DNA of 51,001 nt, taken from Thermoleophilaceae bacterium. Its GTDB lineage: Bacteria; Actinomycetota; Thermoleophilia; Solirubrobacterales; Thermoleophilaceae. Below are positions 9,117-16,082 of this stretch, piece after piece. The position numbers and the translations under genes were made by a program. Under the pieces are notes generated by a model. It saw nothing but the letters and a program-made list of their open reading frames with translations. It had not been told where the DNA came from and searched no databases. The DNA lies in contig DASUWY010000056.1 in NCBI GenBank assembly GCA_036378175.1, positions 1 to 51,001 on the forward strand. Reading direction: 5' to 3'. Position 1 is the stretch's first letter. Every line of letters starts with the position of its first letter.

Positions 9117-9139
9117 TTTTCACAGTGCCACTATGAAAA
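9117..9139. promoter_or_regulatory. Operator O1 of the TTTTCAYA-N7-TRTGAAAA regulon
   Basis: TTTTCACA (9117-9124), 7-base spacer GTGCCAC, TATGAAAA (9132-9139). The dyad extends two further bases on each side. It lies between the divergent small membrane gene (start 9094) and the ferredoxin gene (start 9192), so it can serve both. Confidence 0.75.
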
Positions 9140-9158
9140 ATACCAGGGCACGTGCTAC

Positions 9159-9181
9159 TTTGCCCACCAACACTGTGAAAA
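9159..9181. promoter_or_regulatory. Operator O1b, degenerate second copy before ferredoxin
   Basis: TTTGCCCA (9159-9166), spacer CCAACAC, perfect right arm TGTGAAAA (9174-9181). It starts exactly 42 bases (four helical turns) after O1. The right arm runs into the ferredoxin Shine-Dalgarno AAAAGGAG, so binding would also mask the ribosome-binding region. Confidence 0.55.
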
Positions 9182-9191
9182 GGAGCTGCCC

Positions 9192-9461
9192 ATGGCGTAC
9201 GTGATCGCGGAACCGTGCATCGGCGTGAAGGACCACTCATGCGTGGAGGTCTGTCCCGTCGATTGCATCCACCCGACCCAGGACGAGCCCGACTTCGACC
9301 AGCACGACCAGCTCTACATCGATCCGGCCGAGTGCATCGACTGCGACGCCTGTGTGGAGGCGTGCCCGGTGGACGCGATATTTGCCGAGGATCAGTTGCC
9401 CACCGAATGGGAGCGCTTCACCGAGATCAACGCCGCCTACTACCGGAACGGGGCCAGCTGA
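9192..9461 (+). CDS. fdxA: Seven-iron ferredoxin (3Fe-4S / 4Fe-4S)
   Basis: 89-residue soluble electron carrier. The first cluster motif is C-x7-C-x3-CP in CIGVKDHSCVEVCP, with an additional Cys in CPVDC. The second is the classical 4Fe-4S motif CIDCDACVEACP. The C-terminal tail EWERFTEINAAYYRNG is typical of actinobacterial FdxA. The ATG at 9192 is chosen because AAAAGGAG sits 8 bases upstream; the frame upstream of it reads through the operators and is not coding. Related ferredoxins in other actinobacteria are induced by hypoxia or NO (established for the mycobacterial DosR regulon). Here the two operators upstream suggest control by the local regulator. Confidence 0.93.
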   Translation: MAYVIAEPCIGVKDHSCVEVCPVDCIHPTQDEPDFDQHDQLYIDPAECIDCDACVEACPVDAIFAEDQLPTEWERFTEINAAYYRNGAS

Positions 9462-9471
9462 GCGGCACTGG

Positions 9472-9494
9472 TTTTCATAGTTCCACTGTGCAAA
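9472..9494. promoter_or_regulatory. Operator O2 between ferredoxin and the HTH regulator
   Basis: TTTTCATA (9472-9479), spacer GTTCCAC, TGTGCAAA (9487-9494) with one extra base in the right arm. It lies 11 bases upstream of the regulator's GTG start, the place expected for autoregulation. Confidence 0.65.
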
Positions 9495-9504
9495 ACTCAC
9501 CGTA

Positions 9505-10170
9505 GTGGACCTGCCATTTCCCGGCAGCGAGGACGAGGTGCTGGCGCAGCCCACACGGGCGCGGCTGTTCGCGCTGCTCACGGACCTCAAGCGGCCTGCA
9601 GGGACGGTGGAGCTGGCGGAGCAGCTCGGCCTGCATCCGAACGGTGTGCGTCTGCACCTCGAGCGGATGCGGGAGGCCGGGCTCGTGGAACGGTCGCGGC
9701 CCCGGCAGGCGGTGGGCCGCCCGCGCGACGCCTGGACCATTGCGGCCGGCGCGCGGCCCGGCGGCCGAGCGCCCAGCGCGTACGCCGATCTCGGCCGCTG
9801 GCTCGCGCGGGCGATCGCACCCGGCCCGCGCCGCCTGCGCGACATCGAGGCCACCGGCCGGGAGATCGGACGCGAGCTCGCGCCGGCCAGGGGAGGGTCA
9901 CTCCGCGAGACGCTCGAGACCACACTTGCGTCCCTCGGCTTCCAGCCGCACATGCAGCCCGCAGCCAACGGGGGCGTGACCTTCTGTCTCGGCAACTGCC
10001 CCTACAGGGACGCCGTGCGCGAGAACCAGGAGGTGGTGTGCACGCTCCACCGCGGTCTCACGCGCGGCCTTCTGGACGTGCTCGACCCGAGGGCGGAGCT
10101 CGCCGGCTTCGTGCCGCGCGATCCCGATGAGGCGGGCTGCCTCGTGGAGCTGAGCGGGGTGGGAGAGTAG
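9505..10170 (+). CDS. ArsR/SufR-like HTH regulator with C-terminal cysteine cluster
   Basis: 221-residue DNA-binding protein. The N-terminal winged helix (VELAEQLGLHPNGVRLHLER, about residues 35-54, then AGLVERSRPRQAVGRPRDAW) has the layout of SufR-type regulators. The C-terminal half carries Cys residues in VTFCLGNCPY, then C-x13-C (NCP..VVC) and a last Cys in EAGCLVEL. This pattern resembles Fe-S-binding regulators of the SufR group but with different spacing. An Fe-S cluster sensing NO or iron status is plausible (inference). It lies between two operator copies in a cluster of Fe-S and NO-related genes, so it is the best candidate for the protein that reads the repeated palindrome. Confidence 0.85.
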   Translation: MDLPFPGSEDEVLAQPTRARLFALLTDLKRPAGTVELAEQLGLHPNGVRLHLERMREAGLVERSRPRQAVGRPRDAWTIAAGARPGGRAPSAYADLGRWLARAIAPGPRRLRDIEATGREIGRELAPARGGSLRETLETTLASLGFQPHMQPAANGGVTFCLGNCPYRDAVRENQEVVCTLHRGLTRGLLDVLDPRAELAGFVPRDPDEAGCLVELSGVGE

Positions 10171-10179
10171 GCGGACCGC

Positions 10180-10635
10180 CTACGGGGTGCGGCCGATCCG
10201 CACCCGCCAGACCTCCGGCCCCTGCTCCAGGTACTCCCAGCTGAACTCGCCCTCGTGCTCCGCAGCGAACTGGTAGTAGAGCGGCTTGGGGTCGTGGTCG
10301 TTGACGAGGGTGAACGCCTCTCCGGCACCCAGCTCCTCGTATGTCTCGAAGATCAACTCGTGGCGCCGAGCGGGCACTTCGGCGCGGACGTCGAGCTCGA
10401 GGTCGGAAACTGACATGCGGTTCTCCTTTTCGGTCGGGCTGAGCTTCGCTATGCCGTGCATCAGCGAGTTCACGCGCTCCGCCTCGCGCGGGTGGGAGTG
10501 GCGAAGTGCCGACCATGCCTGGCCGGCAAGGCGGTTCGCCGTCTCGGGATAGCCGGCCCGCCCGAGCGCGACGAGCGCATCGGCCAGCAGGCGGCTGAGG
10601 GCGGCGACTGTGTCCTGGTCCTTTGCTGATGGCAT
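10180..10635 (-). CDS. DUF2249 protein with N-terminal helical extension
   Basis: 151 residues. The C-terminal half (from about residue 77) is a DUF2249 domain: LIFETYEELGAGEAFTLVND, HDPKPLYYQF, then FSWEYLEQGPEVWRVRIGR. DUF2249 proteins often sit beside RIC/hemerythrin and denitrification genes. The N-terminal 73 residues form a predicted helical segment of unknown family. An internal ATG at 10416 is preceded by an excellent AAAAGGAG, 6 bases away, so a 78-residue DUF2249-only form may also be made. The outer ATG at 10635 overlaps operator O3, with GGAG at a good distance. It is divergent from the MIP18-like gene. Confidence 0.82.
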   Translation of the reverse strand: MPSAKDQDTVAALSRLLADALVALGRAGYPETANRLAGQAWSALRHSHPREAERVNSLMHGIAKLSPTEKENRMSVSDLELDVRAEVPARRHELIFETYEELGAGEAFTLVNDHDPKPLYYQFAAEHEGEFSWEYLEQGPEVWRVRIGRTP

Positions 10636-10657
10636 TTTCACACTCCGGATGTAAAAA
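10635..10657. promoter_or_regulatory. Operator O3 between DUF2249 and MIP18-like genes
   Basis: TTTTCACA (10635-10642), spacer CTCCGGA, TGTAAAAA (10650-10657), same 8-7-8 geometry as the other copies. It fills the 30-base divergent intergenic region. Its left arm overlaps the first base of the minus-strand start codon, implying leader-less or very short transcripts. Confidence 0.72.
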
Positions 10658-10665
10658 TAACACCG

Positions 10666-10995
10666 ATGGACCTCACGCAGCTGCTCACCGCACCGCTCAC
10701 GCCCGAGCTGGTGAATGAGCTGCTGCTCGAGGTGATCGATCCCGAGCTCGGGGTGAACATCGTGGACCTCGGTCTGGTCTACGACGTGCGGATCGATGGC
10801 GGCGACGTTGAGGTGGTGATGACCTTGACCACCCCCGGCTGCCCGCTCGGCGGCTTCATCGAGGACGAGATCGCCGACTGCCTCGCGCACGCGCCGCAGA
10901 TCGGGCGCGTGAGGGTGACGCTCGTTTGGGAGCCGCCGTGGGATCCCGAGCAGATGACCGACGCCGCGCGCGAGCAACTCGGATGGGTGTCGTGA
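10666..10995 (+). CDS. MIP18/SufT-like metal-sulfur cluster assembly protein (DUF59)
   Basis: 109-residue small cytoplasmic protein of the MIP18 family. It shows the signature VIDPELGVNIVDLGLVYDVRI, the conserved Cys in TTPGCPLGGFIEDEI, and the C-terminal WEPPWDPEQMTDAAREQLG. Members assist Fe-S cluster assembly or delivery (SufT) or phenylacetate metabolism (PaaD). No phenylacetate genes are present, and the neighbours are Fe-S or NO related, so a cluster maintenance role is favoured. The ATG at 10666 is 8 bases from the end of operator O3. Its TGA overlaps the GTG of the next gene (GTGA), indicating coupling. Confidence 0.9.
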   Translation: MDLTQLLTAPLTPELVNELLLEVIDPELGVNIVDLGLVYDVRIDGGDVEVVMTLTTPGCPLGGFIEDEIADCLAHAPQIGRVRVTLVWEPPWDPEQMTDAAREQLGWVS

Positions 10996-12122
10996 GGCGC
11001 GCGCCGCTCGTGGCCCTGGGCGTGACGGCGCTGTTCGCCGGCCTGTGGGGCGGGCTGCTGCGTCTCGGGCTGTCGGTGCCGGGGCAGACGAGCGACCTCG
11101 CGGAGCTGCACGGACCGCTGATGACGCTCGGCTTCCTCGGCACTCTGATCAGCCTCGAGCGTGCCGTGGCGCTGGGCCGCGGGTGGGGGTTCGCGGCGCC
11201 GCTGGCGAGCGGGACGGGCTCGCTGGCGGCCGCCGCGGGCGCGCCCGGAGGTTTCGGCCCGGCGCTGCTCGCCTTCGCCGCCGCCGTGCTGCTGCTCGAG
11301 CACTTCGTCATCGATCGCCTGCAGCGGACGGCGCACAACGCGGTGATGGCGCTCGGTGCTCTCGCCTGGCTCGCGGCCGCCGTGCTGTGGCTGGCGGGAG
11401 AAGACACGGCGCGCTTCGTGCCGCTCCTCGCCGGCTTCCTCGTGCTCACGATTGTGGGCGAGCGCCTCGAGCTCTCGCGCCTGCGCGGCCTCGGCGGCGC
11501 CAGGCGCACCGCACTGCTCGCCGCCATTGCCCTGCTCGCCGGCGGTCTGGCGCTGTCGATCCCCGCAGAGGGCGCGGGCATGCGGTTGGCCGGCGCGGGC
11601 CTCCTCGCACAGGCCGTCTGGCTTGCTCGCTACGACATCGCCCGTCGCACCGTGCATGGCAGCGGGGTGACGCGCTACATGGCGGTCGCGCTTCTCGCCG
11701 GTTATGCCTGGCTCGCGGCGGCGGGAGTCCTGTGGCTGATTCATGGACTCTCGCCCGACGGCTACGCCTACGACGCCCAGCTTCACGCCCTCTTCCTCGG
11801 CTTCGTGATGTCGATGGTGTTCGCCCACGCGCCGGTGATCGTTCCCGCGGTGCTGCGGGTGCGCCTGCCGTTCCGGCCGCGCTTCTACGTCCACCTGGCG
11901 CTGCTTCACGCCTCGCTCGCGCTGCGAGTGATCGGCGGGGACTGGGCCGGCGACCTGCGTCTGTGGCAGTGGGGCGGCGTGGCCGGCGAGCTGGCCATCC
12001 TGCTGTTCCTCGCCGTGACGGCCGCCGCCGTGGCGGAGGCCCGCCGGGGGCGGGAGGCTGCGGAGGGTCAGGCGGTGAGGCGCTCGCGCACGCGGGGGAA
12101 GAGCACGTTGTTCTCCTCGTGA
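10992..12122 (+). CDS. NnrS-like polytopic membrane protein
   Basis: About 376 residues with roughly 12 hydrophobic helices. The motif ELHGPLMTLGFLGTLISLER near the N-terminus and LHALFLGFVMSMVFAHAPVI near the C-terminal third place conserved His residues inside helices, as in the NnrS family of haem/copper membrane proteins linked to NO tolerance. Similarity is by pattern only, so it is called NnrS-like. The start is taken at the GTG overlapping the previous stop; an ATG at 10983 is an alternative. Its 3' end runs 55 bases into the convergent RIC gene. Confidence 0.75.
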   Translation: MRRAPLVALGVTALFAGLWGGLLRLGLSVPGQTSDLAELHGPLMTLGFLGTLISLERAVALGRGWGFAAPLASGTGSLAAAAGAPGGFGPALLAFAAAVLLLEHFVIDRLQRTAHNAVMALGALAWLAAAVLWLAGEDTARFVPLLAGFLVLTIVGERLELSRLRGLGGARRTALLAAIALLAGGLALSIPAEGAGMRLAGAGLLAQAVWLARYDIARRTVHGSGVTRYMAVALLAGYAWLAAAGVLWLIHGLSPDGYAYDAQLHALFLGFVMSMVFAHAPVIVPAVLRVRLPFRPRFYVHLALLHASLALRVIGGDWAGDLRLWQWGGVAGELAILLFLAVTAAAVAEARRGREAAEGQAVRRSRTRGKSTLFSS

Positions 12123-12766
12123 ACGTGCTGGTGAAGCTCGAGCTCGAACCGCTCGAGCGCCTCGAGCAGCTTCCGGTGAGTCCCGCAGAATGCGTGCTCG
12201 GCCTCGTAGCCGCCTGACAGCTCCCGCATCGCCGTGAGCGCCTCGCCCGCGAACTCGTGGGAGTCCTCGCACATCGCCAGGACGGACTGGTCGAGCCCGG
12301 CCGCGGAGTCGGCGGAGTCGACCGCGCGGCACGCGGGGAACACCATCTTCTCCTCGAGCGCGAAGTGCTCTTCGAGCTCCTCCCGCAGCCCTGTGAAGAC
12401 GCGCCTCAGGTCGGCGAGCTCCGGATGCCCGCCTCCGTGCACGCGAACCACGCGCTCGAGCAGCTCGGCGATCTGAGACAGCGCCCGCCGCGCCGGCTCG
12501 TGGTGCGCCTGGACGATGTGGTCGCACAGCTCCGTGATCGAGGCGCGGCGCACGTCGTGCACGGTGGGACGCGGCTCGGGGCGCTCGCCCAGCGTCTCGA
12601 CCATCGCGATCAGGGTGGCCTCGTCGAGGCCGCGCTCAGCGCACGCGTCGGCGAGCGTGCGGCGCCCGCCGCAGCAGTAGTCGAGCCTCAGCCGCTCCAG
12701 GAGGTCGGCGGACGCGGGACGCTGAAGCACAAGCTCAGCGAGGGTCATGCCAGGGGCGAGCGGCAT
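12068..12766 (-). CDS. ric: RIC/ScdA-type di-iron protein for Fe-S cluster repair
   Basis: 232-residue cytoplasmic protein. The N-terminal ScdA_N domain (residues 1-60) has the hallmark LRLDYCCGGRRTLADAC. It is followed by a hemerythrin-like four-helix bundle with His/Glu ligands in CDHIVQAHHEPA, HGGGHPELADL, EEHFALEEKMVFP, CEDSHEFAG and HQHVHEENNVLFP. Family members (YtfE, ScdA, DnrN) repair iron-sulfur clusters damaged by NO or oxidants. The ATG at 12766 is chosen because AAAGGACC lies just upstream; the longer frame has no coding character. Operator O4 sits 28 bases upstream of the start, tying it to the same regulon. Confidence 0.93.
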   Translation of the reverse strand: MPLAPGMTLAELVLQRPASADLLERLRLDYCCGGRRTLADACAERGLDEATLIAMVETLGERPEPRPTVHDVRRASITELCDHIVQAHHEPARRALSQIAELLERVVRVHGGGHPELADLRRVFTGLREELEEHFALEEKMVFPACRAVDSADSAAGLDQSVLAMCEDSHEFAGEALTAMRELSGGYEAEHAFCGTHRKLLEALERFELELHQHVHEENNVLFPRVRERLTA

Positions 12767-12794
12767 CTGAGGTCCTTTCACGAGGTTGATCGTC

Positions 12795-12817
12795 TTTTCA
12801 CATTCTAACTGTGAAAA
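12795..12817. promoter_or_regulatory. Operator O4 upstream of RIC
   Basis: TTTTCACA (12795-12802), spacer TTCTAAC, TGTGAAAA (12810-12817). This is the best copy of the palindrome, with arms extended by one more pair (C/G). It lies upstream of the minus-strand RIC gene and directly after the stop of the next minus-strand gene. Confidence 0.78.
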
Positions 12818-12819
12818 GG

Positions 12820-13074
12820 TCAGCTCGCGTGGGCGTGCTGATGCTCGTGAGCGCTCGCCGACGTGGCCTGATAGAGGCCGTGCGACCAGACCTGAAGGTC
12901 GAGCATCGCGCTCACATAGGCGCGGTTCGAGGCGATGTCGCCGTCGGCCCGCGCCTTGAGCTCCATCACATGACGGAAGCGCTCGCGCACCTCCTCCTCC
13001 ACTCGATCCGTGAGCAGAGCCACCAGCTCGTCGCGCGAGCCGCTCTCGAGCGCGCGCTCGGCCACTGGTCTCAC
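12820..13074 (-). CDS. DUF6448-like protein, apparently 5'-truncated
   Basis: 84 residues from a GTG at 13074, ending in a His-rich tail HEHQHAHAS. The whole ORF matches my recollection of the C-terminal half of DUF6448 proteins (ALESGS..., EEEVRERFRHVMELK, LDLQVWSHGLY). The frame upstream of the GTG, back to a TGA at 13114-13116, still reads like the family (YSGLKSAGL, GPVRPVAERALE). This suggests the N-terminal half has been lost and translation, if any, restarts inside. A decayed gene is as likely as a short functional one. Start uncertain; no good Shine-Dalgarno. Confidence 0.55.
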   Translation of the reverse strand: MRPVAERALESGSRDELVALLTDRVEEEVRERFRHVMELKARADGDIASNRAYVSAMLDLQVWSHGLYQATSASAHEHQHAHAS

Positions 13075-14452: not shown

Positions 14453-15100
14453 CTAGGCCTGGATCAGCCCACGGCGTATGGCGTACCGGGTGAGCTCCAC
14501 GCGGTCGCGCAGGCCGAGCTTGTCGAGGATGTTCTGGCGGTGGCGCTCCACCGTCTTCACGCTGATCACCAGCTCCTCGGCGATCTCCTTGCTGGTGTGC
14601 GCCTCGGCGATCAGCTTGAGCACCTCGAGCTCGCGCGGCGTGAGGATGTCCGGCTCGTCCGCGCCGCGCTCCACGTAGTCGCGGACCAGGGTGTTGATCG
14701 CGGAGGGATAGAGGAACGACTCGCCGCGCATCGTGGCGCGCGCGGCGTCAACGATGTCCTCGTCGGCGCCGGACTTGAGCACGTAACCGGACGCGCCGGC
14801 CCTCAGCGCCTGGAAGAGGTACTGCTCGCTGTCGTACATCGACAGCATGAGGACGCGGATGTCCGGGTTGCGCTTGGACAGCTCGGTGGCCGCCTGGATG
14901 CCGGTCATCCGCGGCATCGACACGTCGAGGATCGCCAGGTCGACGTCCTCGGCGAGCGCCTTCTCCACCGCCTCGGCGCCGTCCGACGCCTCGGCCACCA
15001 CGCGCAGGTCGGGTTGGGCGTCCAGCACGCGCCGGAGGCCGGAACGGACGAGCGAGTGGTCGTCTGCGATGAGGATGCGGGTGACAAGCGGGGTGGGCAC
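14453..15100 (-). CDS. NarL/DevR-type response regulator
   Basis: 215 residues: a receiver domain (acidic pair D13-D14, phospho-acceptor D59 in AILDVSMP, Lys in YVLKSG) plus a LuxR-type HTH (LTPRELEVLKLIAEAHTSKE, then VKTVERHRQNILDKLGL). It is activated by the kinase encoded one base upstream (the TGA of the kinase and this GTG are separated by a single C). The neighbourhood of universal stress proteins and nitrate reductase indicates control of hypoxic or nitrate-dependent genes, as with NarL and DosR (family knowledge). The repeated GGGGAAGACCCC sites are its most likely targets (inference). Confidence 0.93.
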   Translation of the reverse strand: MPTPLVTRILIADDHSLVRSGLRRVLDAQPDLRVVAEASDGAEAVEKALAEDVDLAILDVSMPRMTGIQAATELSKRNPDIRVLMLSMYDSEQYLFQALRAGASGYVLKSGADEDIVDAARATMRGESFLYPSAINTLVRDYVERGADEPDILTPRELEVLKLIAEAHTSKEIAEELVISVKTVERHRQNILDKLGLRDRVELTRYAIRRGLIQA

Positions 15101-15101
15101 G

Positions 15102-16082
15102 TCAGTCGCTCCTTTCGCCGGCTGCCGGCACTTCCAAACGTACCTCCACGCCGCCGCTCGCCGACGGCTTCACGGCCAGCGCTCCGTCCACGAGCAGGGC
15201 GCGCTCGCGCATGCCTCTGATGCCGCCCTGGCGATCGGGTAGCACCCCTCCTGGGAAGCCGCGGCCGTCGTCGCGGACGGTGAGCACCACGCTGCGCGGG
15301 CCGGGCTCGAGGCGCAGCAGCGCCTTGCTCGCCCCAGCGTGGCGAGCGACGTTGGTGAGGCTCTCCTGCGCCACGCGGTAGAGCGCCAACTCCGCCTCGT
15401 CCGTGAGGGGAGGCAGCGCCGGATCGAGCTCGCGCTCCACCCGCAGCCCGGTGCGGCGGCCGAACGCGCTCGAAAGCTCTGTGAGCGCGCTCACGAGCCC
15501 CAGCTCCTCGAGCATCTCGGGACGCAGCTCACGTGCGATCCGCCGCACCTCCTCGAGCGCCTGGCGCACTGCGGACTTCGTCTGCACGAGCTCGTCCTGG
15601 CGCTGCTCCGGTAGGGCCGGCGCGAGCGCGTCGAGCTCGAGCAGAACGGCGGTGAGCACCTGCCCAACCTCATCGTGCAGGCCGCGCGCGATCCTCAGCC
15701 GTTCGGCCTCCTGGGCGGCAAGGGCCCGCCTGCCGCTCTCCCGGCGCTCCGCCTCCAGCCGCTCGAGCATGTCGTTGAACGACGTGACCACCCGTCCGAT
15801 CGCGTCTCCCGGCGGCGCGGGGAGGCGCTGGCCCGGGCGCAGCAGGTCGACCGTCTCCATTCGCGCCGCGAGCTGCTCGAGGGGAGCGAAGGCGCGGCGC
15901 AGCAGCAGGTACTCACCGAGCAGAGCGGCGGAGAGTCCCACGAGCAGAACCACGGCCTCGATCAGCGCGATGTTCGCGCTCACCGTCACCGGGGTGATGA
16001 TCAGCAGAACGGTGGCGACGACGAGCACGAGCGCGCTCGCCAGGAATACGCGCCAGAAGAAGGGGAGTCGCCGAGGCAGCAT
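15102..16082 (-). CDS. Membrane sensor histidine kinase (NarX/DesK type)
   Basis: 326 residues. Two closely spaced TM helices (about 10-31 and 37-60) have almost no extracytoplasmic loop. They are followed by a HAMP segment (AFAPLEQLAARME... to about 110), a HisKA_3 dimerisation helix with phospho-accepting H136 in RIARGLHDEVGQ, and an HATPase domain with N-box YRVAQESLTNVARHA and G-box DDGRGFPGG. With no periplasmic domain, the signal is probably sensed in the membrane or cytoplasm. The gene sits in a USP-kinase-regulator operon (gaps of 18 and 1 bases). Confidence 0.94.
   Translation of the reverse strand: MLPRRLPFFWRVFLASALVLVVATVLLIITPVTVSANIALIEAVVLLVGLSAALLGEYLLLRRAFAPLEQLAARMETVDLLRPGQRLPAPPGDAIGRVVTSFNDMLERLEAERRESGRRALAAQEAERLRIARGLHDEVGQVLTAVLLELDALAPALPEQRQDELVQTKSAVRQALEEVRRIARELRPEMLEELGLVSALTELSSAFGRRTGLRVERELDPALPPLTDEAELALYRVAQESLTNVARHAGASKALLRLEPGPRSVVLTVRDDGRGFPGGVLPDRQGGIRGMRERALLVDGALAVKPSASGGVEVRLEVPAAGERSD

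What the first reader, a model, noticed from the sequence alone, without database searches (positions are those of the whole stretch)
9117..12817. One palindrome, TTTTCAYA-N7-TRTGAAAA, at every promoter of an NO/Fe-S repair cluster
Five sites share 8-7-8 geometry: 9117 (O1), 9159 (O1b, degenerate), 9472 (O2), 10635 (O3), 12795 (O4). Each lies in the promoter region of a ferredoxin, an HTH regulator, DUF2249 / MIP18 genes, or RIC. The NnrS-like gene is coupled to MIP18. The motif is not the FNR, NsrR or Crp pattern (arms are TCACA..TGTGA, reverse polarity of Crp). The target genes all bear on NO and Fe-S damage. The set, placed beside nitrate reductase, looks like a compact nitrosative-stress regulon not matching one I can name.
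Basis: partly seen in the sequence, partly recalled or inferred. Interest (0 to 1): 0.85.

Follow-up and report, generated by a model that had tools for sequence, protein, structure and literature searches.

The report
Fe-S repressor regulon for NO damage
In a little-studied order of soil actinobacteria, one DNA palindrome marks the promoters of a small gene set that probably repairs nitric-oxide damage, and a repressor encoded in the same cluster, which probably carries an iron-sulfur cluster, is very likely the protein that reads it.

Summary
Five TTTTCAYA-N7-TRTGAAAA sites lie at the stated coordinates (0.01 expected); the 4.29-Mb genome has one more, before an orphan membrane-protein gene. 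The palindrome is conserved in Solirubrobacterales: within 150 nt upstream of 52 of 68 regulator genes (0.35 expected) and within 250 nt of 22 of 25 RIC matches found by family search. The 221-aa HTH protein at 9505-10170 is its likely reader: three invariant cysteines are spaced much as in the [4Fe-4S] regulators SufR and ArnR, and where a site lies close to the gene (42 promoters) it usually overlaps a -10-like element 6-9 nt before the start codon (32 of 42), which is repressor geometry. I infer that NO hits the cluster, the repressor leaves, and ferredoxin, regulator, DUF2249, MIP18, a heme-copper-oxidase-fold protein and RIC are induced. It is not SufR, and no site precedes nar here. Against certainty: four genomes with exact sites lack a full-length regulator, two of them near-complete, and nothing is tested at the bench. 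New variant of a known kind.

The parts
9117..9139 (.). O1, distal operator of the ferredoxin promoter region (0 mismatches)
   Evidence: 33.7 bits
9159..9181 (.). O1b, second operator 42 bp from O1, overlapping the ferredoxin Shine-Dalgarno region; same spacing class (38-44 bp) as 15 of 18 site pairs upstream of orthologous regulators
   Evidence: 29.7 bits
9192..9461 (+). FdxA-like 4Fe-4S ferredoxin
   Evidence: site upstream of 45 of 53 homologues in the scanned loci
9472..9494 (.). O2, operator of the regulator gene
   Evidence: 32.7 bits; site within 150 nt upstream of 52 of 68 orthologous regulator genes
9492..9497 (+). Candidate -10 element AAAACT, overlapping O2 and 7 nt before the GTG start (leaderless layout)
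   Evidence: read; conserved layout
9505..10170 (+). Regulator: winged HTH (HTH_20) plus C-terminal domain with invariant C165, C179, C212 and H182; proposed [4Fe-4S] repressor
10180..10635 (-). 151-aa protein: N-terminal helical part (related to a C-terminal extension of RIC in genome G083) plus DUF2249
10635..10657 (.). O3, between the divergent DUF2249 protein gene (its ATG touches the site) and MIP18 (ATG 8 nt beyond)
   Evidence: 31.3 bits
10666..10995 (+). MIP18/SufT-like Fe-S assembly protein (DUF59)
10986..12122 (+). Orphan membrane protein overlapping the MIP18 gene; predicted heme-copper-oxidase fold, no Pfam match (exact start uncertain)
12068..12766 (-). RIC (ScdA_N + hemerythrin) iron-centre repair protein
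   Evidence: TIGR03652 198.6 bits, cut-off 204.7
12795..12817 (.). O4, operator of RIC (0 mismatches)
   Evidence: 36.0 bits; site upstream of 22 of 25 RIC matches in the order (window included)

Best explanation
The five sites are operators of a dimeric, autoregulating repressor encoded at 9505-10170. It belongs to the SufR/ArnR kind of winged-helix regulators that hold a [4Fe-4S] cluster through three cysteines (here C165, C179, C212, with a fourth, non-cysteine ligand). With its cluster intact the dimer grips TTTNCACA-N7-TGTGNAAA, which at its own promoter overlaps the -10 element, and blocks transcription. NO, arising from nitrate/nitrite respiration, nitrosylates the cluster; the repressor lets go, and ferredoxin, regulator, DUF2249 protein, MIP18 with the HCO-fold membrane protein, RIC and an unlinked orphan membrane protein (C81) are induced to remove NO and mend Fe-S and di-iron centres. 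Shown by computation: the sites, their conservation, their gene set, the invariant cysteines. Inferred: that this protein binds them, that it carries [4Fe-4S], that it represses, and that NO is the signal.
For: Sites real and confined to this gene set. Conserved upstream of the regulator itself in 52 of 68 orthologues (0.35 expected), 16 of 26 regulators and 17 of 20 ferredoxins in loci outside the matrix's training set, and 22 of 25 RIC matches found without reference to regulator or motif. Exact sites in 20 of 70 genomes with the regulator and 4 of 131 without. RIC-bearing genomes have the regulator in 18 of 22 cases, others in 52 of 179. Distant homologues outside the order have the same arms one base wider upstream in 7 of 27 (0.65 expected). 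Three invariant Cys spaced 14 and 33 residues apart, like ArnR 14 and 30 and Rv1460 13 and 28. Operator overlaps a -10-like element in promoters with a close site. ArnR: a [4Fe-4S] repressor of nar and hmp that loses DNA when its clusters bind NO (passages of PMC12343034).
Against: G007 (97% complete, 5 contigs) has an exact site but no regulator at E<=1e-5; G092 (100% complete) and G107 have only HTH-part matches, G115 none. 16 of 68 regulator genes lack a site with <=3 mismatches. Six of 36 exact places in the order have no clear link to the core genes. The genome comparisons treat related genomes as independent. No binding, cluster or NO data exist for this protein; NO is inferred from the target genes and from ArnR.
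Confidence: 0.62

Rival explanations
1. Same repressor and operators, but the physiological signal is Fe-S status in general (iron limitation, O2, peroxide), with NO only one of several triggers, as described for SufR.
For: The regulator's architecture is SufR-like; M. tuberculosis SufR is described as relieved by NO and ROS (passages of PMC9045647). Ferredoxin, MIP18 and RIC would also serve general Fe-S repair.
Against: The own suf operon has neither regulator nor site; the set is rich in genes tied to NO or nitrate respiration elsewhere (RIC, HCO/NOR-fold protein, DUF2249), and in relatives nar genes often lie close by.
Confidence: 0.25
2. The palindrome is read by another transcription factor encoded elsewhere, and the HTH gene is only one of its targets.
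For: Four genomes have exact sites without a full-length regulator; two RIC genes in regulator-less genomes (G115, G197) also have sites.
Against: Sites sit before the regulator gene itself in 52 of 68 cases; presence of regulator and exact site are associated (p 2.8e-7); distant homologues are preceded by similar arms. G107, G115 and G197 are 78-87% complete.
Confidence: 0.1
3. The sites are a chance or repeat-derived similarity without regulatory role.
For: None found.
Against: the arms but not the spacer are conserved; spacing 7 is preferred (68 places against 5 for spacing 6 and 4 for spacing 8 in 40 loci; spacings 5 and 9, with 20 and 15, probably re-count the same sites two bases out of register).
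Confidence: 0.01

Closest known systems
ArnR of Corynebacterium (PMC12343034, abstract and passages seen)
   Same: Winged-helix regulator, three cysteines at almost the same spacing, controls NO- and nitrate-related genes, [4Fe-4S] repressor released by NO
   Different: Its targets are narKGHJI and hmp; here no site precedes nar and the targets are ferredoxin, DUF2249, MIP18, HCO-fold protein and RIC. Its operator sequence was not in the text I could read, so operators were not compared.
SufR of cyanobacteria and actinobacteria (passages of PMC6034842, PMC9045647, PMC11995493)
   Same: HTH plus C-terminal three-cysteine domain, autoregulation, cluster-dependent repression
   Different: Controls suf; operator CAAC-N6-GTTG in S. 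avermitilis; TIGR02702 score far below cut-off here; no site near suf. I recall, but could not check, an M. tuberculosis operator ACACT-N5-TGTGA, whose ACA-N7-TGT core would have the same spacing as here.
NsrR, HcpR, DNR, NnrR and NorR regulons (PMC1274295, passages seen)
   Same: Compact regulons of NO-detoxification and repair genes including dnrN (ric) and nnrS
   Different: Other regulator families and other operators

Membership tests
SufR (TIGR02702 equivalog) | Score above the curated cut-off | tested here: not met
   23.1 bits against 178.8, HTH part only
SufR (TIGR02702 equivalog) | Linked to, or operator before, the suf operon | tested here: not met
   suf on contig C51: no homologue of the regulator on that contig, no site with <=4 mismatches in 8.5 kb
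SufR (TIGR02702 equivalog) | Operator CAAC-N6-GTTG | tested here: not met
   operator here is TTTNCACA-N7-TGTGNAAA; the SufR motif as quoted for S. avermitilis in PMC11995493
SufR/ArnR kind (three-Cys winged-helix Fe-S regulators) | HTH followed by a C-terminal domain with three conserved cysteines at spacing of about 13-14 and 28-33 | tested here: met
   C165, C179, C212 invariant in 16 orthologues; ArnR and Rv1460 positions
SufR/ArnR kind (three-Cys winged-helix Fe-S regulators) | Binds [4Fe-4S] and loses DNA on reaction with NO | not testable with these tools
   needs purified protein
ArnR | Operator before nar | tested here: not met
   best place upstream of narG scores -0.2 bits; in relatives 1 of 6 NarG, 0 of 11 NarH, 0 of 10 NarJ
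NsrR (Rrf2 family) | Rrf2 domain | tested here: not met
   Pfam gives HTH_20 and a sub-threshold HTH_5 only
Crp/Fnr regulators of NO genes (HcpR, DNR, NnrR) | Operator such as TTGAT-N4-ATCAA or TGTGA-N6-TCACA | tested here: not met
   arms of opposite polarity and spacing 7 (motifs)
NnrS (PF05940), for the 10986-12122 protein | Match to PF05940 | tested here: not met
   no Pfam match at E<=10. The genome search with PF05940 found nothing, but nothing rang in its 14 controls either, so that search alone is no evidence
Heme-copper oxidase / NO reductase superfamily, for the 10986-12122 protein | Heme-copper-oxidase fold | tested here: met
   VIA-align Z 22.6-26.4 over 328-344 residues to cbb3 and cNOR subunits at 11-15% identity; Foldseek alone had no match at E<=0.001
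Heme-copper oxidase / NO reductase superfamily, for the 10986-12122 protein | Heme and second-metal ligands, catalysis | not tested
   invariant histidines exist, but they were not mapped onto the ligands

The most novel reading that the evidence does not exclude
In Solirubrobacterales a previously undescribed lineage of SufR/ArnR-like Fe-S repressors fills the place that NsrR has in proteobacteria: a dedicated NO sensor with its own TTTNCACA-N7-TGTGNAAA operator. Its regulon includes two orphan membrane-protein families, one with a predicted heme-copper-oxidase fold, that may be unrecognised NO reductases or NO-binding heme proteins.
Probability: 0.4. Interest if true: 0.75.

Novelty: new variant of a known kind. 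Interest (0 to 1): 0.58.

Why it matters
If true, it defines the NO / Fe-S damage regulon of a large, mostly uncultured order of soil actinobacteria, with an operator specific enough to point at targets (six places in 4.3 Mb). It extends the three-cysteine Fe-S regulators from suf and nar control to a dedicated repair regulon, and gives functional context to DUF2249 proteins and to two orphan membrane families under the same control. My ten paper searches found no description of such a regulon; the library lacks most subscription journals.

Tried and rejected
Chance or repeat origin was rejected. Control of suf was tested and not found. Control of nar was tested and not found in the window (relatives). 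Pfam NnrS identity of the membrane protein was rejected, though its predicted fold fits heme-copper oxidases; the PF05940 genome search is uninformative because its controls were silent too.

Method troubles. The gene finder mis-called several frames and was replaced by homology. The table is flawed: its profiles displaced the start positions (probably through spurious N-terminal extensions) and dropped many genes; it gave for example 28 of 71 regulators and 0 of 6 ferredoxins with a site at a 15-bit cut-off. One search, anchored on reference proteins and with a 10-bit cut-off, replaces it. In one search the DUF2249 query began at an internal ATG, so its 0 of 8 does not test the true start. 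The matrix was trained on sites picked with the window's own pattern, so it is partly circular; and the second half (loci outside the training set) are fairer, and anchors on a gene family but still scores with that matrix. Loci L100-L119 were fetched nearly all because they hold exact sites, which inflates RIC and COX1; one search gives counts without them and without the window (RIC 3 of 3, COX1 4 of 4, COX2 3 of 4, MIP18 3 of 6, NarG 1 of 5). RIC matches without a site: G007 (8.1 bits; its arms look eight bases apart), G175, and one partial match in G131.

Papers. The 2021 Redox Biology paper on M. tuberculosis SufR and the 2020 AEM paper on S. avermitilis SufR are not held, so their operators are recalled or second-hand. 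Passages of PMC10848736 gave no SufR operator.
Full report
CHECK OF THE OBSERVATION. A search for TTTTCAYA-N7-TRTGAAAA with up to 3 mismatches returns exactly the five places listed (9117, 9159, 9472, 10635, 12795); 0.01 are expected and 0 of 100 dinucleotide shuffles reached five. In the whole assembly (4,287,095 bases, 89 contigs; the window is one whole contig, C56) the same search gives six places: these five and C81:15340; the reversed-pattern control gives none. A matrix trained on 63 sites from 39 orthologous loci (window and same-genus locus left out) scores the five at 29.7-36.0 bits and the C81 site at 28.3; the next best place in the window scores 3.9 and the best of 20 shuffled windows 9.1.

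GENES. Pfam and NCBIfam give an FdxA-like ferredoxin (9192-9461), an HTH_20 regulator (9505-10170, GTG start), DUF2249, a MIP18/SufT-like Fe-S assembly protein (10666-10995) and RIC (ScdA_N plus hemerythrin; TIGR03652 at 198.6 bits, just below its cut-off of 204.7). The DUF2249 domain and the 73 residues before it form one open frame, 10180-10635; the N-terminal part is related (24 of 58 identical) to the C-terminal extension of RIC in genome G083. The membrane protein that overlaps the MIP18 gene has no Pfam match even at E<=10. Its model (pLDDT 77.8) aligns with cbb3 oxidase and cNOR subunits at Z 22.6-26.4 over 328-344 residues, although Foldseek itself gave nothing at E<=0.001. The C81 site lies just upstream of a 440-aa membrane protein of a second orphan family, the only one found in the genome; members of that family occur in 12 of the 40 regulator loci.

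CONSERVATION. The regulator is found in 70 of 201 genomes of the order at E<=1e-15 and in 67 loci of a named-genome scan, titled Solirubrobacterales, Solirubrobacteraceae, Thermoleophilaceae, Thermoleophilia, Conexibacter, Paraconexibacter, Candidatus Siliceabacter or with less specific names. In 40 orthologue loci there are 65 sites with <=3 mismatches against 0.2 in shuffles. Of 68 distinct regulator genes with enough upstream sequence, 52 have a site with <=3 mismatches within 150 nt (46 with <=2), against 0.35 in mononucleotide shuffles. 15 of 18 site pairs there are 38-44 bp apart, like O1 and O1b (42 bp).

WHICH GENES. Exact TTTNCAYA-N7-TRTGNAAA occurs at 36 places in 24 of 201 genomes, with no hit for the reversed pattern. 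By my reading, 30 of the 36 lie beside a regulator (one a fragment), ferredoxin, RIC, orphan-A or COX1 gene; of the other six, one is before a cupin-like gene and five have no clear link. In all scanned loci a site of >=10 bits lies upstream of 54 of 70 regulator, 45 of 53 ferredoxin, 8 of 8 RIC, 5 of 5 COX1, 3 of 4 COX2, 4 of 9 MIP18, 6 of 24 orphan-A and 1 of 8 orphan-B genes, but of 1 of 30 HHE, 1 of 10 c10mem, 1 of 7 DUF488, 0 of 8 DUF2249 (query began inside the frame), 0 of 4 cupin, 1 of 6 NarG, 0 of 11 NarH, 0 of 10 NarJ, 0 of 6 response-regulator, 0 of 2 histidine-kinase and 0 of 2 CorA genes; random stretches of the same loci 3%. Orphan-A and HHE genes often follow the regulator gene directly, which may explain their low counts. 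Without site-selected loci and the window: regulator 53 of 68, ferredoxin 42 of 49, RIC 3 of 3; in 28 loci outside the matrix's training set: regulator 16 of 26, ferredoxin 17 of 20. A search by the RIC family alone found 25 matches in 22 of 201 genomes; 22 of the 25, window included, have a site of >=15 bits within 250 nt.

WHO READS IT. Exact sites occur in 20 of 70 genomes with the regulator and 4 of 131 without (my tally; p 2.8e-7). RIC-bearing genomes have the regulator in 18 of 22 cases, the others in 52 of 179 (p 2.3e-6). These tests treat genomes as independent, which relatives are not. Homologues from outside the order (27 examined) are preceded in 7 cases by TTTGCAC-N10-GTGCAAA with <=3 mismatches against 0.65 expected: the same arms, one base wider. 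Three of the seven (L209, L211, L219) are very alike, so the independent number is smaller; the other 20 show nothing above control. Against: G007 (97% complete, five contigs) has an exact site before an orphan-A gene but no regulator at E<=1e-5; G092 (100% complete) and G107 have only matches to the HTH part, G115 none. The G092 site lies at a contig end, those of G107 and G115 on contigs of 4.6 and 10.2 kb.

HOW IT PROBABLY WORKS. In 16 aligned orthologues C165, C179 and C212 are invariant, as are N164, P166, Y167 and H182. The spacing (14 and 33) resembles ArnR (C179, C193, C223) and Rv1460 (C203, C216, C244). The model (pLDDT 79.6) shows a winged-helix domain, linker helices and a C-terminal alpha/beta domain; solved structures match chiefly in the HTH part. 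In the 42 of 68 regulator promoters with a close site, 20 have ACT right after it, giving a -10-like AAAACT that overlaps the right arm; in 32 of 42 that position lies 6-9 nt before the first in-frame start codon, as expected of a leaderless promoter covered by its operator; a -35-like TTGG precedes the site more weakly. The window's O2 has this layout (AAAACT at 9492-9497, GTG at 9505). Such a position suits a repressor. ArnR holds [4Fe-4S], represses, and loses DNA when each of its clusters has bound NO (abstract and passages of PMC12343034); M. tuberculosis SufR is described as relieved by NO and ROS (passages of PMC9045647). By analogy I propose a [4Fe-4S] repressor released by NO. This step is inference.

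WHAT IT IS NOT. SufR: model score 23.1 against 178.8, no homologue and no site at the own suf operon, operator unlike CAAC-N6-GTTG (passage of PMC11995493). ArnR-like control of nar: no site before nar here. NsrR: no Rrf2 domain. Crp/Fnr boxes: wrong polarity and spacing (passages of PMC1274295). Passages of a review on RIC regulation name NsrR, DnrD, NorR, SrrAB, SarA, SarV and MgrA (FNR and Fur indirectly), not this kind; the word SufR does not occur in it (PMC9268430). Passages of a haloarchaeal study say that for ArsR regulators no direct relation to the nitrogen cycle was known (PMC11218638); DUF2249 proteins have been tied to nitrate respiration in Thermus (PMC6282519, abstract and passages).

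VERDICT. A real, conserved, compact regulon with a very probable reader of the SufR/ArnR kind, and a probable but untested NO signal. New variant of a known kind.

Noticed in passing
L006 176-1498, minus strand (own genome C81:14042-15325 by profile): 440-aa membrane protein behind the sixth site; orphan family without Pfam match, found in 12 of 40 regulator loci. A UBP-type zinc-finger-like frame (named by eye) lies on the other side of the site.
   Followed up: partly
L115 2886-3293, minus strand (same-genus genome G067): A gene behind an exact site starts MAYVTAEPSIRVREHSS, like the ferredoxin's MAYVIAEPCIGVKDHSC but without the cysteines, as if the ferredoxin start had been taken over.
   Followed up: no
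own genome C68:49216-49812 (L197 3702-4349, minus strand): A second, distant homologue of the regulator (E 2.5e-18) beside frames that look by eye like CcmH and thioredoxin-like cytochrome c maturation genes.
   Followed up: no
9140-9145, and upstream flanks listed: The distal member of tandem site pairs is often followed by ATACCA or ATATCA (seen by eye), a second possible promoter element.
   Followed up: no
14453-16082, minus strand: A histidine kinase and response regulator pair between RIC and the nar genes, without a site; a candidate for nar control.
   Followed up: no
12820-13074, minus strand: DUF6448 gene ending 2 nt before O4, upstream of RIC on the same strand.
   Followed up: no
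L049 167-189, L046 8781-8803, L111 4261-4283, L064 7877-7899: In relatives, cytochrome oxidase subunit I or II genes stand behind the same palindrome, suggesting that an oxidase belongs to the regulon there.
   Followed up: partly
10417-10635, minus strand; L069 2346-2606: The small helical part fused to DUF2249 here is fused to the C-terminus of RIC in genome G083 (41% over 58 residues), linking the two proteins.
   Followed up: partly
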